A stretch of 64,000 bases of DNA from an uncultured Bacteriovoracaceae bacterium (lineage in GTDB: Bacteria; Bdellovibrionota; Bacteriovoracia; Bacteriovoracales; Bacteriovoracaceae): positions 1-64,000 of the forward strand of contig CALHLC010000031.1 in NCBI GenBank assembly GCA_938034385.1, written 5' to 3'. Position 1 is the first letter of the stretch; each line of letters starts with the position of its first letter. This document shows, piece by piece, positions 31,491-49,752 of this stretch. Under the pieces are notes generated by a model. That model worked only from the letters and a program-made list of their open reading frames with translations, made no database searches and was not told where the DNA came from. A program made the position numbers and the translations under genes.

Positions 31491-32339
31491 CTAAGCGTGT
31501 GCGTGCCCATGATCGTGTTCATGCCCATGCTCGTGTTCTTCATCATGTCCGTGTTCTTCATCATGTCCGTGTAAATCTGTTGCCATTTGCACATATACAA
31601 CACTTAAAATAGTAAAAACAAATGCCTGCATAAAACAAACAAATATTCCTAAAAAGATAAATGGAATAGGCACAACCTGTGGAATTAAATCATAGAAAGC
31701 TTCTAAGACTTTATGATCTCCAGTAATATTTCCTTTAAGTCTTAATGCTAAAGACAAAGGTCTAATTGTATTTGAAATAATCTCAATACAAAAAATTAAT
31801 AACGAAATTGGAACTAATAAGATTGGAAGTTTAGGTCCAAAGAAATGTCCCAGGTAATGCTTAATCCCCTGAGCTTTAATTCCTTTAAAATTGTAATATA
31901 GAAAAGAAAAAATCCCTAAAGCAAAAGTAGTATTAAAGTTTGTTGTAGCAGAACTAAACCCTGGTATTAATCCAAAAGCATTCGTTAAAAAAATAAATAC
32001 AAATAAAAAGCAAGCATATGGAAAAAATTGTTGTGCTCTTTTTTCATCCATTACTTCTTGGCAAAGATTATACATTCCTTGACCAATCTCTTCGATAATA
32101 TTTCTAATGCTAATTCCATTATCTGGAAGCACTAAATCTTTTTCTTCTTTTTTACTTGTTAAAACTCTATAGAGAAGACCAATAAGTATTACTATAATTC
32201 CAACTAAACCAAATTGAAGCATGTGCTCTTTTACATGAAACATACTTTCAATTTTTTTGAGCCATAAAAAGCCAGCAGCATAAGTATTGACTGAAAAGAA
32301 GAATAAAACGCTGGGCGTTAATTTTATTAGTTTATTCAT
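31491..32339 (-). CDS. atpB: ATP synthase F0 subunit a
   Basis: Subunit a forms the proton half-channels of F0. The 282-residue product has an N-terminal signal-like stretch and about six helices. The ISNTIRPLSLALRLKGNITG segment contains the essential arginine. The last 25 or so residues are an extreme His/Glu/Asp tail encoded by short imperfect DNA repeats (HGHDEEHGHDEEHEHG). It is 19 nt upstream of atpE and downstream of the atpI-like gene, separate by 20 kb from the rest of the ATP synthase operon. Confidence 0.95.
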   Translation of the reverse strand: MNKLIKLTPSVLFFFSVNTYAAGFLWLKKIESMFHVKEHMLQFGLVGIIVILIGLLYRVLTSKKEEKDLVLPDNGISIRNIIEEIGQGMYNLCQEVMDEKRAQQFFPYACFLFVFIFLTNAFGLIPGFSSATTNFNTTFALGIFSFLYYNFKGIKAQGIKHYLGHFFGPKLPILLVPISLLIFCIEIISNTIRPLSLALRLKGNITGDHKVLEAFYDLIPQVVPIPFIFLGIFVCFMQAFVFTILSVVYVQMATDLHGHDEEHGHDEEHEHGHEHDHGHAHA

Positions 32340-40318: not shown

Positions 40319-41782
40319 CTATACTTTAATTTTTTTGAGAACTAAAAATTGAATTCCTATTCCAAACAATGTTGAAATAAAAATATATAAGTTCAATCCA
40401 CTTGGAAGGTCTTTCATAATGAAAGCAAATATTAAGGGCAAGAACATCATTACTTTTTGTTGAGTTGGGTCAGCTGCTGTTGTAGGAGTTAGCTTTTGTT
40501 GAGCAAACATAGCTAGGCCCATTAAAACTGGGAGTAAATAATATGGATCTTTTGCACTTAAATCTTGAATCCAGCCTAGAAATGGAGCCTCAACTAATTC
40601 TACTGAGTTATAGAGGACTTTATAAAATGCAAAGAAAATAGGCATTTGAAGCAGCATAGGAAAGCATCCACTCATTGGGTTTGTTCCAGCTCTTTTAAAT
40701 AATGCCATTGTTTCTTTTTGAACCTTGGCAGGATCGTTTTTATATTTTTCTTTAATTTTAGTTAATTCGGGTTGGATGCTCTGCATCTTTTTCATATTTT
40801 TAGTTGATATGTATTGAAGAGGAAAGGTTAAGAATCTTATTAATAGAGTTAATAAAATTATTGCAATGCCCCAATTTGGTACCAATCCATAAAAAAACTG
40901 TAAGCCTCTGAGAACTGGAACAGCAATAATTGAGAAAAAGCCAAAATCTACTGCCATGTGGAGGTTGTTTCCTATCTTTATTAATTGATCATAGGTTTTC
41001 TTTACAAAGATAATTGAAAAGCCTTGATTAATTGGAGTGATAATATTTAATTTATTATCTATGCCTGTAGAAATTGTAGACTGATTATTTTCTCTACTTA
41101 GCACTGTAGTTAGTGTGTGGTAATAAAAATCAGAACCAAACCACTGAGCTCCACTTGTTGCCTTTTCTTCTGACCCTACTGTAATTGTTTCAAGGTTGTG
41201 TTTATTATCCAAGTAAGTAAATTGACTTATTTGAACACCATTTTTTTCTAAAACATTTGAATGAACAATATGTTTAATAGAGCTAAATCCATTATTTTTT
41301 GTAATATCAAATTTTAAAAGACCACTGTCTTGAATATTTAAATTAATATCAATTGTTTGGCTGCTTAATGTATAAGATTTTTCTGAGTTTTTATTAACAT
41401 TGAAATTAATTTTTTGAGCTTGATTATTACTTATAAAAAAAATCTCTTGCAACACTTTTGGTTGATTAAATAACTCATTAGCATTTTTATTTTTATAACT
41501 AGCTCCAACTATTTCTAAATTTGAACTAATTTTATAATTGAATTCTCCAGTACTTATTTCAAAAATCTCCCCACTTGGTTCTATAGGGGCAGGTGTTATA
41601 TCAGTATTAATAGGTGTTTGAGCTGTTGAGTTAGACTTGTTAGCATTTCCTGTTGCTTGGTTTGAAATAGTTTCTTCGGGTTTAGTAAGATCTTTTTTAG
41701 GTGCAAAGAAAAACTGCCATCCAAATAGAATTAATCCAGAAATTAATACTGCAAGCATTGCTCGAGTTTGATCGGTTTTCAT
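40319..41782 (-). CDS. yidC: Membrane protein insertase YidC/Oxa1
   Basis: YidC inserts proteins into the cytoplasmic membrane, including ATP synthase subunit c. The 487-residue Gram-negative type has an N-terminal anchor (AMLAVLISGLILFGWQFFF), a large periplasmic beta-domain and the conserved five-helix insertase core: WGIAIILLTLLIRFLTFPLQ, with its hydrophilic-groove arginine, and NPMSGCFPMLLQMPIFFAFY. A short Asn/Thr/Pro/Ser-rich linker (about 40-75) includes a copy of the PIEPS-coding motif found in mnmE. It is followed by rnpA and rpmH upstream on the same strand, the normal rpmH-rnpA-yidC unit. Confidence 0.96.
   Translation of the reverse strand: MKTDQTRAMLAVLISGLILFGWQFFFAPKKDLTKPEETISNQATGNANKSNSTAQTPINTDITPAPIEPSGEIFEISTGEFNYKISSNLEIVGASYKNKNANELFNQPKVLQEIFFISNNQAQKINFNVNKNSEKSYTLSSQTIDINLNIQDSGLLKFDITKNNGFSSIKHIVHSNVLEKNGVQISQFTYLDNKHNLETITVGSEEKATSGAQWFGSDFYYHTLTTVLSRENNQSTISTGIDNKLNIITPINQGFSIIFVKKTYDQLIKIGNNLHMAVDFGFFSIIAVPVLRGLQFFYGLVPNWGIAIILLTLLIRFLTFPLQYISTKNMKKMQSIQPELTKIKEKYKNDPAKVQKETMALFKRAGTNPMSGCFPMLLQMPIFFAFYKVLYNSVELVEAPFLGWIQDLSAKDPYYLLPVLMGLAMFAQQKLTPTTAADPTQQKVMMFLPLIFAFIMKDLPSGLNLYIFISTLFGIGIQFLVLKKIKV
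41577..41590 (-). repeat. Copy of the CYATAGAACCA motif inside yidC
   Basis: On the minus strand the sequence GCCCCTATAGAACCAAGT lies in the yidC linker. The 14-mer CTATAGAACCAAGT is identical to one in mnmE at 44139-44152. See the six-copy array at 45032. Confidence 0.55.
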
Positions 41783-43998: not shown

Positions 43999-44012
43999 GG
44001 TTCTATGGGGGC
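43999..44012 (-). repeat. Intergenic copy of the CYATAGAACCA motif
   Basis: The plus strand reads GGTTCTATGGGGGCAG in the 80-nt dnaA-mnmE gap, so the minus strand carries GCCCCCATAGAACCAGG. It resembles the yidC copy, but here no protein is encoded, which argues that the motif is not only a peptide-coding repeat. Confidence 0.45.
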
Positions 44013-44044: not shown

Positions 44045-45511
44045 ATGAAAGATTATTTCGACTCAACTGATTCAATTATTGCTTTAAGCTCAGGTTCCTT
44101 GGGTAAGAGTGCTATTTCTATTATTAGAGTGTCTGGTTCTATAGAACCAAGTAATATACTGGAATGCTTAAGTATTAGTGGTCCCATAGAACCAAGAAAA
44201 GCATATTTTTCCAAGTTGCTTGATGGTTCTAAGTTGCTTGATGAGATTGTTTTAACCTATTTTTGTGCTCCACATAGTTATACAGGTGAGAATGTTTTTG
44301 AATTTTGTGTTCATGGAAACCCTTTGAATATTAAGCGTATAATTAATTTTTTGAGTTCAAAGTTTAATTTAAGAAGTGCTGACAAAGGTGAATTTAGTTA
44401 TAGGGCCCTTAGGAATAATAAGCTTAGTTTAAATCAAATTGAAGGGTTGGATCTTGTTCTTAATTCCAATTCTAGTTTTGCAATAGATTCAGGACTAGAG
44501 CTTTTATCAGGTAATATCGATAAAGATTTTAGTCTTTTAAGGAAGTCATATTTAAAACTAGTGAGCCTTCTAGAGATAGTGATTAACTTTTCTGATGACG
44601 TTGGGGAAAAAGAATCTCTTGATATGTTTAAAGAAGAATTTGAATCTTTTAAATCTATTTGCAAACTACTCTCTGATAGATCGTCTATAGAAGGTGATTC
44701 GTTAATTAAGCCTAAGATTGTTTTATATGGTAAACCAAATTCTGGTAAGAGCACTTTCTTTAATCGATTGCTTAAAAGACAAAGAGCAATAGTCTCTGAA
44801 GTTGAGGGAACTACTCGAGATTATATTTCTGAATCTCTGATTATTAATGATATTAATTTTGAAATTATTGATACGGCTGGAATACGAGAAACAGAAAATA
44901 TTATAGAATCTCAAGGAATTAGCCTTTCTAATGATTTACTTAAAAGGTCGTTCTATAGAGTTTGTCTCTGTAAAGAAGTCCCTTTAGATACTTCACCTTT
45001 TGACTTGGTTATTGTTTCCCACTCTCGTTTTGGTCCCATAGAACCACTATCGACTGGTCCCATAGAACCACTATCGATTGGTCCCATAGAACCACTATCA
45101 TCTGGTCCCATAGAACCACTATCATGTGGTCCCATAGAACCACTATTATCTGGTCCCATAGAACCACTATTATCTGGTTCTATTGATCTTGAGAAATTTA
45201 ACTATATGATAAATGCCGATTTAACCGTAGATAACGATGAGTTTGATTCCATAGTTAAGAAGCTCATATTTGAAAAGTTTGAAAGAGCAATTAAAACTAA
45301 TCCTATAATGGTACCAAGACATACTGATATAATCGTTTCTTTAGGACAACTTGCTTCTGACTTTTCTACCTTAATCAGCACTGAAAACGATTTCGGAATT
45401 TTGTCTTCTGAAATTTCTTCTATGGGTGCATTAATAGAAGAGTTGATTGGTCAGGTAAGAAGTGATGATGTATTAGATAATATCTTTGCAAATTTCTGCA
45501 TAGGAAAGTAG
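44045..45511 (+). CDS. mnmE: tRNA modification GTPase MnmE with a repeat-filled G domain
   Basis: MnmE with MnmG modifies the wobble uridine (cmnm5U) of several tRNAs. The N-terminal folate-binding domain is clear (ALSSGSLGKSAISIIRVSG, CAPHSYTGENVFEFCVHG). G1 is GKPNSGKST (about 229), G2 EGTTRDY and G3 IIDTAGIRET. The expected G4 motif N-K-x-D is not found; at its place the sequence reads VIVSHSRFG and runs into six 8-residue GPIEPL(S/L)x repeats (about 330-377), after which G5 is also poorly matched. The C-terminal FCIGK with the essential Cys is intact. The frame is open throughout, so the gene is probably expressed, but nucleotide specificity may be altered. mnmG follows after a parS-like site. 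Confidence 0.9.
   Translation: MKDYFDSTDSIIALSSGSLGKSAISIIRVSGSIEPSNILECLSISGPIEPRKAYFSKLLDGSKLLDEIVLTYFCAPHSYTGENVFEFCVHGNPLNIKRIINFLSSKFNLRSADKGEFSYRALRNNKLSLNQIEGLDLVLNSNSSFAIDSGLELLSGNIDKDFSLLRKSYLKLVSLLEIVINFSDDVGEKESLDMFKEEFESFKSICKLLSDRSSIEGDSLIKPKIVLYGKPNSGKSTFFNRLLKRQRAIVSEVEGTTRDYISESLIINDINFEIIDTAGIRETENIIESQGISLSNDLLKRSFYRVCLCKEVPLDTSPFDLVIVSHSRFGPIEPLSTGPIEPLSIGPIEPLSSGPIEPLSCGPIEPLLSGPIEPLLSGSIDLEKFNYMINADLTVDNDEFDSIVKKLIFEKFERAIKTNPIMVPRHTDIIVSLGQLASDFSTLISTENDFGILSSEISSMGALIEELIGQVRSDDVLDNIFANFCIGK
44135..44193 (+). repeat. Two upstream copies of the mnmE palindromic motif
   Basis: GGTTCTATAGAACC at 44135-44148 is a perfect 14-bp palindrome; GGTCCCATAGAACC at 44180-44193 equals the first 14 bases of each unit in the six-copy array 840 nt downstream. 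They encode GSIEPS and GPIEPR in the N-terminal domain. Confidence 0.65.
45032..45175 (+). repeat. Six tandem copies of a 24-bp unit inside mnmE
   Basis: Units start at 45032, 45056, 45080, 45104, 45128 and 45152. Each begins with the identical 19 bases GGTCCCATAGAACCACTAT; only the last five vary (cgact, cgatt, catct, catgt, tatct, tatct counting from the final t of ACTAT). A degenerate seventh copy starts at 45176. The unit length keeps the reading frame (8 residues). Identity at synonymous positions shows recent amplification or selection on the DNA. No spacers of unrelated sequence are present, so this is not a CRISPR array. Confidence 0.95.
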
Positions 45512-45527
45512 TGTTCCACGTGGAACA
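45512..45527. promoter_or_regulatory. parS-like centromere site 1 (perfect palindrome)
   Basis: TGTTCCACGTGGAACA is a perfect 16-bp palindrome and differs from the widespread parS consensus TGTTTCACGTGAAACA by one symmetric pair of bases. It lies directly after the mnmE stop and before mnmG, 3.3 kb from parB. ParB should nucleate here. Confidence 0.9.
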
Positions 45528-47378: not shown

Positions 47379-47980
47379 TGCTTCCTGAGGAATTCTGTAC
47401 TAGGTATCTTGAGCTTATAACTGGAAAGTATTCAGGAATAAACTTAACAAGAATTACAAATTTAAATGATTTCAGGGTTAAGCAATATGAAGACTCTATA
47501 TCTATTATAAATATCCTTGAGGATCATTTAGCTTTGGCAGATAAGGTTATTGATATTGGATTTGGAGGTGGGTTCCCAATTCTTCCTCTGGCTAATGAGT
47601 TGAGAGATAAAACCTTTCTTGGCCTAGAAGCTCGAAACAAGAAAGTTAAAACTGTTAAAGAGATATCCAAAGAACTTGGTATAGACAATACTGCTTTCAA
47701 TCATTGCAGATTTGAAGACTATGAATACTCTGATGGAGATCTTGTTATTACTAAGGCAATGGGCAGTGTTGCTAGCACACTTAACGCATTGAGTACGAAA
47801 AGACTAATTAAGGTAATATTTTACAAGGGCCCTAAATATTTTACAGAAGAAGAGCCAATGATGAAGACAATCAATAAAAAATGGAAGAAGATAATATTAG
47901 AAAAATACAGTCTATCCAATGGTGACGAACGAGTTATTGTTGGTTATAAAAATGTTCCACATGGAACAAAGGTAATATAA
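47378..47980 (+). CDS. rsmG: 16S rRNA m7G527 methyltransferase RsmG (GidB)
   Basis: RsmG methylates G527 of 16S rRNA using S-adenosylmethionine. The 200-residue product has YSGINLTRITNLNDF at the N-terminus and the SAM-binding loop VIDIGFGGGFPILPLA (usually D-x-G-S-G-A-G-F-P-G). LVITKAMGSVASTL corresponds to the R-A-x-x-x catalytic region, with Lys in place of Arg. The last codons contain the second parS-like site. parA begins 10 nt downstream. Confidence 0.9.
   Translation: MLPEEFCTRYLELITGKYSGINLTRITNLNDFRVKQYEDSISIINILEDHLALADKVIDIGFGGGFPILPLANELRDKTFLGLEARNKKVKTVKEISKELGIDNTAFNHCRFEDYEYSDGDLVITKAMGSVASTLNALSTKRLIKVIFYKGPKYFTEEEPMMKTINKKWKKIILEKYSLSNGDERVIVGYKNVPHGTKVI
47953..47968. promoter_or_regulatory. 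parS-like centromere site 2 (one mismatch)
   Basis: TGTTCCACATGGAACA differs from site 1 by a single central base and is otherwise palindromic. It lies inside the last codons of rsmG, 23 nt before parA. Confidence 0.75.
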
Positions 47981-47990
47981 AGTATAACGC

Positions 47991-48803
47991 ATGGCAAAAA
48001 TAATATCAATTACAAATCAAAAGGGTGGAGTAGGGAAAACTACTACATCAATCAATCTAGCTGCTTGTTTAGCTGCAGCAGAACGAAAAACGTTATTACT
48101 TGACTTAGACCCTCAAGGAAATGCTAGTGCCGGCCTAGGAGTTGATAAGCAAATATTTAATGAGAGCAATGTTTATCACACGCTTATAGGTAATAAAGAT
48201 ATCACTAAGACTATTTATAAAACTGAATTACCAATGCTTGATATTTGTCCATCTGATAATAATCTTATTGGAGCGGAAATTGAGTTAGTTGGAGTGATTG
48301 CAAGAGAGTCGAAATTAAAACTAGCTCTTGAGAAAATTAGATCAGAGTATGAATTTATTATTATAGATTGCCCTCCATCTCTTGGTCTATTAACTCTTAA
48401 TGCCTTGAATGCGAGTGATAGTTATATTGTTCCATTACAAACTGAATACTTTGCAATGGAAGGTTTATCACAATTATTAAATACTATAAGACTTGTTAAA
48501 AATTCTCTAAATCCTAAGATTGAATTAGAAGGGATTTTATTAACAATGTTTGATGCCAGGACAAGTCTATCAAAAGAAGTTGCCTCGCAAATTACTGAAC
48601 ACTTTGCTGGGAAAGTTTTTAAAACGATTATACCTAGAAATGTAAAATTAAGTGAATGTCCAAGTTTTGGAAAACCGATAATTTTATATGATATAAATTC
48701 AAAAGGTAGCGTTAGCTATTTATCACTTACAAAAGAAATATTAATAAAAAACATGAAAAGTCGAGAAGGTCAGAAAGACCTTTTAACGGAAATAGAACTT
48801 TAA
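47991..48803 (+). CDS. parA: Chromosome-partitioning ATPase ParA (Soj)
   Basis: ParA moves ParB-parS complexes by ATP-driven binding to the nucleoid. The 270-residue product has the deviant Walker A KGGVGKTTTSINLAACLA, LLLDLDPQGNASAGLG, and the Walker B-like FIIIDCPPSLGLLTLNAL. It lacks an N-terminal helix-turn-helix, as usual for chromosomal ParA. parB follows 16 nt downstream. Confidence 0.97.
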   Translation: MAKIISITNQKGGVGKTTTSINLAACLAAAERKTLLLDLDPQGNASAGLGVDKQIFNESNVYHTLIGNKDITKTIYKTELPMLDICPSDNNLIGAEIELVGVIARESKLKLALEKIRSEYEFIIIDCPPSLGLLTLNALNASDSYIVPLQTEYFAMEGLSQLLNTIRLVKNSLNPKIELEGILLTMFDARTSLSKEVASQITEHFAGKVFKTIIPRNVKLSECPSFGKPIILYDINSKGSVSYLSLTKEILIKNMKSREGQKDLLTEIEL

Positions 48804-48819: not shown

Positions 48820-49752
48820 ATGAGTAAAAAATCAGTATTGGGTAAAGGTATAGGAGCATTATTGAATAATAGTATAGCAACTCCAGATACAGTTAAAATG
48901 AGGGCCCCAATTGAGCGAGAAGAAAAAAAATCTGTAAAAGAAAATGATAGTCTGAAAAATTCTGAAATGACTATGCTTGATATGGATATGCTTAAGCCAA
49001 ATGTTGATCAGCCTAGAAGAGTTTTTAGAGATGAAGATATAAATGAATTATCTCAATCAATAAAAGAAAATGGAATAATTCAACCATTAATTGTCACTTT
49101 TGATGAGAAGAATAAAAATTTTGAAATCATTGCGGGAGAGAGAAGGTTTAGAGCAGCTAAAAAAGCGGGCTTAAATCAAGTTCCTGTTTTTATTAAAAGA
49201 GTTACTAAGAAAGAAAAATTGGCGATGGCCATTATTGAAAATGTTCAAAGAGCAGACTTAAATTGTGTAGAAGAAGCTTTGGCATACTTTCAATTAATAG
49301 ATGAATTTAACTTAACTCAAGAACAGGTTGCTAAAACAATTGGAAAAAGTAGATCAAGTATTGCCAATACATTGAGAATATTAAGGCTTCCTAAAGAGGT
49401 CTTAAAAATGCTTCAAAAAGAAGAGTTAAGCTTTGGACATGCAAAAGTATTAATTTCACTTAAAGATGATAAAGAGATTATTTCTATTGCTAACTTTGCT
49501 AAAACTGAAGGTTGGTCTGTTAAAGAATTATCAAATCAATTGCATGGTAATGACGAACTAATTAAGAAAAACAAACCTGGTAAGCCAAATAAGAAAAATG
49601 AAAAATTTAATCTTTTAAAAGATAAACTTGAGAGGCAAACTGGTTTTCATTTTGATATTAAAGCCAATCATAATAATAAAGGAAAGATATCGATTAAGTT
49701 TAACTCTTCTGATGAGTTTAATACGATTTATCAATTTTTATTAGATCTATAA
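48820..49752 (+). CDS. parB: Chromosome-partitioning protein ParB (CTPase)
   Basis: ParB loads at parS, binds CTP and spreads as a sliding clamp. The 310-residue product begins with KKSVLGKGIGALL (ParA-interacting), then has the CTP-binding motifs AGERRFRAAKKAG (about 105) and IENVQRADLN (about 145), followed by a helix-turn-helix (TQEQVAKTIGKSRSSIANTL) and a C-terminal dimerisation domain. Two parS-like sites lie in the preceding 3.3 kb. It is convergent with the oxygenase gene 1 nt away. Confidence 0.97.
   Translation: MSKKSVLGKGIGALLNNSIATPDTVKMRAPIEREEKKSVKENDSLKNSEMTMLDMDMLKPNVDQPRRVFRDEDINELSQSIKENGIIQPLIVTFDEKNKNFEIIAGERRFRAAKKAGLNQVPVFIKRVTKKEKLAMAIIENVQRADLNCVEEALAYFQLIDEFNLTQEQVAKTIGKSRSSIANTLRILRLPKEVLKMLQKEELSFGHAKVLISLKDDKEIISIANFAKTEGWSVKELSNQLHGNDELIKKNKPGKPNKKNEKFNLLKDKLERQTGFHFDIKANHNNKGKISIKFNSSDEFNTIYQFLLDL

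What the first reader, a model, noticed from the sequence alone, without database searches (positions are those of the whole stretch)
45032..45175. Six-copy 24-bp minisatellite replaces the G4 region of MnmE
Seen: G1, G2 and G3 of MnmE are intact, but where N-K-x-D should stand the protein reads S-H-S-R-F-G and then six copies of GPIEPL(S/L)x. The C-terminal CIGK is intact and the frame is open. Known: N-K-x-D confers guanine specificity in TrmE/MnmE GTPases, and MnmE is near-universal. Inference: either this MnmE has altered nucleotide use, or the gene hosts a DNA element whose sequence, not its peptide, is selected. The first 19 bases of every unit are identical, including synonymous positions.
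Basis: partly seen in the sequence, partly recalled or inferred. Interest (0 to 1): 0.75.

Follow-up and report, generated by a model that had tools for sequence, protein, structure and literature searches.

The report
Centromere-like DNA array inside mnmE
The repeats in this tRNA-modification gene are a family-wide cluster of 16-bp palindromic DNA sites beside the replication origin of Bacteriovoracaceae bacteria. They are most likely the docking sites of a second chromosome-partition protein pair (ParA2-ParB2) that this family carries besides the standard one.

Summary
The array is real (six 24-bp units, 45032-45175), and it is a DNA element, not a peptide repeat. Its core is a near-palindrome, T-GGTCCTATAGGACC-A (16 bp with flanks), which also occurs at 41577, 43999, 44135 and 44180. 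In 94 of 97 sampled Bacteriovoracaceae genomes the site is present, clustered around mnmE, dnaA and parAB. It usually lies in the G4-G5 loop of mnmE. It also lies between genes, out of frame, in mnmG, and in one genus in the ParB linker. Codons are fixed for the DNA (Gly 122/122 GGT; Ile 94/102 ATA, background 22%). RNA pairing is not kept. Canonical parS sites stand beside it.

The family, and no other sampled Bdellovibrionota (0 of 194), carries a second chromosomal parA-parB operon (ParB2, 92 of 97). ParB2 differs from both ParB and Noc at the known specificity residues. Two ParB proteins and exactly two recurrent origin palindromes make ParB2 the most likely ligand, but binding was not tested.

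The changed G4 of MnmE ([S/T]HxD) is family-wide, also in array-less relatives, so it is a separate matter. No literature on this site or second pair was found in the library searched.

The parts
45032..45175 (+). array of six 24-bp units, each with one palindromic site GGTCCCATAGAACC (sites at 45032, 45056, 45080, 45104, 45128, 45152)
44045..45511 (+). mnmE, host gene; array encodes a disordered GPIEPxxx loop between G4 strand and next strand (AF2 pLDDT about 33 at residues 337-382)
45017..45028 (+). degenerate G4 position (SHSR instead of NKxD), residues 325-328
44135..44148 (.). perfect palindromic site GGTTCTATAGAACC in mnmE 5' part
44180..44193 (.). site GGTCCCATAGAACC in mnmE 5' part
43999..44012 (.). 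site GGTTCTATGGGGGC (one GCCCC half) in the non-coding dnaA-mnmE gap
   Evidence: a site of this GCCCC-half type at the same place in three congeners (L048, L049, L050)
41577..41590 (.). site GGTTCTATAGGGGC inside yidC; present in the same gene in L048 and L049
45176..45189 (.). decayed copy GGTTCTATTGATCT at array end
45512..45527 (.). canonical parS TGTTCCACGTGGAACA directly after mnmE
47953..47968 (.). near-canonical parS TGTTCCACATGGAACA at rsmG 3' end
47991..48803 (+). parA (standard chromosomal)
   Evidence: homologues placed
48820..49752 (+). parB (standard; residues R, T, R, G at specificity positions 173/179/184/201)

Best explanation
The array is a cluster of 16-bp palindromic DNA-binding sites (consensus TGGTCCTATAGGACCA), conserved across Bacteriovoracaceae within a few kb of dnaA and parS. 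mnmE hosts it in frame, in a disordered loop of its G domain between G4 and the following strand. The most likely ligand is ParB2, the second ParB-family protein of these bacteria, encoded with its own ParA (parA2-parB2) elsewhere on the same chromosome. By analogy with ParB and Noc, ParB2 dimers would load on these sites, close as CTP-bound clamps and spread over the origin, giving ParA2 a second partition complex beside the parS complex of ParB1. Shown: the array, DNA-level selection, origin clustering, the family-wide second parAB pair, and its altered specificity residues. Inferred: that ParB2 is the binder, the CTP clamp, and a role in origin segregation or positioning.
For: DNA, not peptide: peptides picked by protein pattern use Gly GGT 122/122 (background 0.33), Ser TCT 32/32 (0.32), Ile ATA 94/102 (0.22), last Pro CCA or CCG 101/101. 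Sites occur between genes with spacings not divisible by 3 (L054 after parB: 23, 23, 34, 31), out of frame in mnmE (L066 5872, L079 6102), in mnmG frames 1 and 2, and in the parB linker of G016. Origin only: the strict sites listed for the near-complete genomes G005, G010, G013, G015 and G017 all lie on the mnmE contig within about 6 kb of mnmE. Family-wide: strict sites in 94/97 family genomes (up to 21); 16/194 other Bdellovibrionota have one each, none more. De novo scan of the origin region: only two 14-bp palindrome families recur across genera, parS (25 loci) and this one (13 and 10 loci for the two symmetric forms); none recurs around parA2-parB2. A flanking T not in the search pattern is 91% conserved, giving 16 bp in the register of this family's parS (TGTTCCACGTGGAACA), 5 of 8 half-site bases shared. 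ParB2: 92/97 family genomes, 0/194 others; parA2 directly upstream in 35/35; ParB_N and HTH_ParB domains; best PDB matches Noc and Spo0J, E about 1e-15, fold agrees; GERRxRA and ENxxR motifs kept. Residues at 173/179/184/201 read mostly K, C/S, K, Y (some variation at 179 and 184), unlike RTAG (ParB) and QKKR (Noc) of PMC7383237.
Against: No binding data. ParB2 and the site coincide in one clade, so co-occurrence is a single evolutionary event and cannot single ParB2 out from other family-specific DNA-binding proteins. parA2-parB2 lies far from the array (about 380 kb in G005), whereas parS usually lies near its parAB. ParB2 lacks the LGKGL-type ParA-binding motif. Five family genomes lack a full ParB2: G029 is cut in parA2 by a contig end, G255 has a C-terminal fragment, three genomes 82-85% complete are unresolved. 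Similarity of the site to parS (5/8 half-site bases) is only modestly beyond chance.
Confidence: 0.65

Rival explanations
1. The palindromes are bound by another family-specific protein, for example a replication-control or transcription factor, and ParB2 acts elsewhere.
For: Sites lie within a few kb of dnaA, some next to or inside it; co-occurrence cannot single out ParB2.
Against: No other recurrent palindrome exists for ParB2 either at the origin or around parA2-parB2; site length and symmetry match ParB-family targets.
Confidence: 0.25
2. The standard ParB (ParB1) binds both canonical parS and these sites as auxiliary parS.
For: Sites stand next to parS and parAB in nearly all genomes.
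Against: ParB1 keeps R173 and G201, which read parS, and canonical parS is still conserved; the sites differ from parS at three of eight half-site positions, including both centre bases.
Confidence: 0.08
3. Ordinary minisatellite: slippage expanded a harmless peptide repeat in a loop of MnmE; no DNA function.
For: Copy number and spacers vary between relatives; units in one genome are near-identical; the loop is disordered in the AF2 model.
Against: Synonymous positions fixed across some 30 genera, sites between genes and out of frame, sites in other genes, restriction to the origin.
Confidence: 0.02
4. RNA hairpin element (processing or terminator) in the mnmE transcript.
For: A 5-bp stem with a 4-nt loop is possible for perfect copies.
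Against: Only 97 of 226 sites keep a fully pairable stem; the commonest form GGTCCTATAGAACC has a C-A mismatch; half-sites vary separately.
Confidence: 0.01

Closest known systems
Chromosomal ParABS with parS (ParB CTPase; Bdellovibrio bacteriovorus, Caulobacter)
   Same: parA-parB operon, ParB_N and HTH_ParB domains, GERRxRA and ENxxR motifs, 16-bp palindrome near the origin, several sites
   Different: Second pair on the same chromosome as a complete standard ParABS; site centre CTATAG instead of CACGTG; other specificity residues; sites in arrays inside coding sequence, far from their presumed parAB
Noc and NBS of Firmicutes
   Same: ParB-family relative with changed DNA specificity; 16-bp palindrome; Noc is among the best structural matches
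   Different: Here with a parA partner; K, C/S, K, Y instead of QKKR; NBS reads ATTTCCCGGGAAAT and is spread over the chromosome (from memory), whereas these sites are at the origin only
Plasmid-type ParAB with clustered centromere sites
   Same: ParB2 is about 30% identical to plasmid ParBs, e.g. Turneriella pTURPA.01; clustered short-period sites recall plasmid centromeres
   Different: Chromosomal, single copy, syntenic (gdhA, nadA, cysteine desulfurase) in the two loci read; sites lie at the chromosomal origin
Rickettsia palindromic elements
   Same: Palindromic DNA carried in frame inside protein genes
   Different: Those are dispersed genome-wide and longer (from memory); these are 14-16 bp and confined to the origin

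Membership tests
ParABS partition system | ParA-type ATPase gene next to a ParB-family gene | tested here: met
   35/35 loci have parA2 directly upstream on the same strand; KGGVGKT motif
ParABS partition system | ParB N-terminal CTP-binding domain and HTH domain | tested here: met
   PF02195 7.8e-14, PF17762 5.6e-05; GERRFRAM and ENSSRE
ParABS partition system | Palindromic centromere sites near the origin | tested here: met
ParABS partition system | ParA-binding motif (L/F/I)G(K/R)G(L/F/I) in ParB N-terminus | tested here: not met
   ParB2 starts MAKxFxxRVSKxxRK; motif definition from PMC12704722
ParABS partition system | ParB binds the site and loads with CTP | not testable with these tools
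   needs binding and CTPase assays
canonical parS | TGTTNCACGTGNAACA | tested here: not met
   consensus TGGTCCTATAGGACCA; canonical parS present separately
Noc / NBS | specificity residues QKKR at 173/179/184/201 | tested here: not met
   mostly K, C/S, K, Y
Noc / NBS | sites spread over the chromosome outside the terminus | tested here: not met
   origin region only
MnmE GTPase | TrmE_N domain, G1-G3, helical domain, C-terminal CIGK | tested here: met
MnmE GTPase | G4 NKxD | tested here: not met
   SHSR in the window; [S/T]HxD typical in the family; NKSD only in L075

The most novel reading that the evidence does not exclude
A whole bacterial family runs two ParABS systems on one chromosome origin: the standard one on parS, and a second ParA2-ParB2 with a new specificity, whose centromere is written mostly inside the coding sequence of a tRNA-modification GTPase.
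Probability: 0.6. Interest if true: 0.85.

Novelty: new variant of a known kind. Interest (0 to 1): 0.75.

Why it matters
One bacterial chromosome normally has one ParABS. A second pair with its own origin-proximal sites would ask what a second origin-handling complex does in a family that includes predators, and how its relatives outside the family do without it. It would add a third naturally evolved specificity to the ParB/Noc family, where the specificity code has been dissected (PMC7383237). It also shows a centromere-like array carried in frame by a near-universal gene, with codons and peptide bent to the DNA need.

Tried and rejected
Peptide-level repeat: rejected by codon test, out-of-frame and non-coding sites. 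RNA hairpin: rejected by pairing count. Genome-wide dispersed element: rejected, own-genome copies of GGTCCCATAGAACC (up to one mismatch) lie only in mnmE and relatives' sites lie at the origin. ParB2 site next to parA2-parB2: no sites and no recurrent palindrome there. G029 as counter-example (sites, no ParB2): parA2 is cut at a contig end. Link between half-site variants (GCCCC, GGTTC, GGTCC) and ParB2 HTH residues: looked at, no clear pattern, no statistic made. Turneriella plasmid: carries its own 16-bp palindrome TGTCGGATATCCGACA twice, suggestive only. Papers: no hit for the site sequences or for a second ParABS, and nothing on ParB in Bacteriovorax; the library holds open-licence papers only.

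Full report
Observation. The array is present as described: six 24-bp units at 45032-45175 inside an open mnmE frame, the first 19 bases identical. The protein is an MnmE by domain matches. The G4 position reads SHSR just before the array.

What the unit is. The core GGTCCCATAGAACC is a near-palindrome. Related copies lie in mnmE at 44135 (perfect, GGTTCTATAGAACC) and 44180, in the dnaA-mnmE gap at 43999 and in yidC at 41577. In the own genome, matches to GGTCCCATAGAACC with up to one mismatch occur only in mnmE. Relatives in the family, identified as Bacteriovoracaceae from the record titles of two congeners, carry the same site in mnmE with other spacers and copy numbers.

Placement. Origin regions of 35 relatives were mapped. 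Sites lie mostly in the mnmE loop between G4 and the next strand (131 of 226 by position), but also between genes, in mnmG (frames 1 and 2), yidC, rnpA, dnaA and parB. In G013 (L054) five sites follow parB with spacings 23, 23, 34 and 31. In G031 (L076) three sites lie between mnmE and mnmG beside parS, with no array in mnmE. In G016 (L075) seven sites lie in frame in the linker of ParB1 between its LGKGI motif and its ParB_N domain, while mnmE there keeps NKSD and has no array. In the near-complete genomes G005, G010, G013, G015 and G017 every strict site listed lies within about 6 kb of mnmE.

Selection acts on DNA. Peptides of the repeat type, found by protein pattern, use codons that spell the palindrome: Gly GGT 122/122, Ser TCT 32/32, Ile ATA 94/102 against 22% in the rest, last Pro CCA or CCG 101/101. 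Tandem copies are not independent, but the bias holds across some 30 genera. RNA stems are not kept (97 of 226 pairable), and the commonest form has a C-A mismatch. Weak GCCCC half-sites almost never pair with each other (1 of 226), as expected for a dimer needing one good half.

Relation to parS. A T before the core, outside the search pattern, is 91% conserved, so the site is TGGTCCTATAGGACCA, 16 bp, in register with this family's parS TGTTCCACGTGGAACA, differing at half-site positions 3, 7 and 8. Canonical parS (or a copy within two mismatches) is present as well in most genomes, typically between mnmE and mnmG and at the 3' end of rsmG. A pattern-free scan for recurrent perfect 14-bp palindromes in the origin regions returned only parS (25 loci) and this site (13 and 10 loci) above the level of one or two loci.

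A second ParAB. Nearly all family genomes searched carry a further ParB_N-domain protein of about 270-300 aa, besides the standard ParB. Call it ParB2. With a profile it is found in 92 of 97 family genomes and in none of 194 other Bdellovibrionota. Strict sites are in 94 of the same 97; 16 of the 194 have exactly one each. The five without ParB2 include one cut by a contig end and one with a fragment. ParB2 stands directly behind a ParA gene in 35 of 35 loci. The neighbourhood (gdhA, nadA, cysteine desulfurase; named from the sequences, not searched) is shared by the window's genome and G005, and in G005 the pair lies on the same contig as the origin. Best PDB sequence and fold matches are Noc and ParB/Spo0J (the ParB2 model has mean pLDDT 80 and pTM 0.49). 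At the four positions that set ParB versus Noc specificity (PMC7383237), my alignment by eye gives mostly K, C/S, K, Y, with some variation at 179 and 184; ParB1 of the window has R, T, R, G. ParB2 lacks the usual ParA-binding motif. It is about 30% identical to plasmid ParBs, so a plasmid origin is possible.

Inference. Two ParB proteins, two recurrent origin palindromes, one of them canonical parS: the other most likely belongs to ParB2. Binding is not shown, and since both traits mark the same clade, another family-specific protein remains possible.

The host gene. The array encodes a disordered loop (AF2 pLDDT about 33, residues 337-382) between the G4 strand and the next strand. The G4 motif is [S/T]HxD or more degenerate in most of the family, also without an array. 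The array therefore sits in a part of MnmE that had already changed; whether the loop was free because G4 had decayed is a guess.

Known or new. B. bacteriovorus has two orphan ParAs without ParB neighbours (PMC7186360) and one ParABS with two parS (PMC10547168). No paper in the library mentions this site or a second ParABS in Bacteriovoracaceae. I rate it a new variant of a known kind.

Noticed in passing
window 45017-45028 and family MnmE alignment: G4 of MnmE is [S/T]HxD across most Bacteriovoracaceae instead of NKxD; SKLD in L060 and NKSD in L075 are exceptions. Effect on nucleotide use unknown.
   Followed up: partly
window 31496-31572: 18-bp tandem repeat (CGTGTTCTTCATCATGTC and variants), not examined further.
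   Followed up: no
L070 end and L071 start (G012): mnmE is split between two contigs exactly at a long array (at least 16 sites over both ends), an assembly break probably caused by the repeat.
   Followed up: partly
L054 7360, L062 7061, L083 6803 (mnmG, frame 1): Three genera have a site about 406-409 bases into mnmG, apparently over the QYRTL-coding stretch; a site built on a conserved protein motif.
   Followed up: partly
about 15 family genomes, e.g. G005:C1:1424151-1424372: A third, weaker ParB_N-domain protein of about 300-360 aa occurs in part of the family.
   Followed up: no
L140 (Turneriella plasmid pTURPA.01): The plasmid with the nearest plasmid ParB holds two copies of the 16-bp palindrome TGTCGGATATCCGACA, perhaps its own centromere site.
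   Followed up: no
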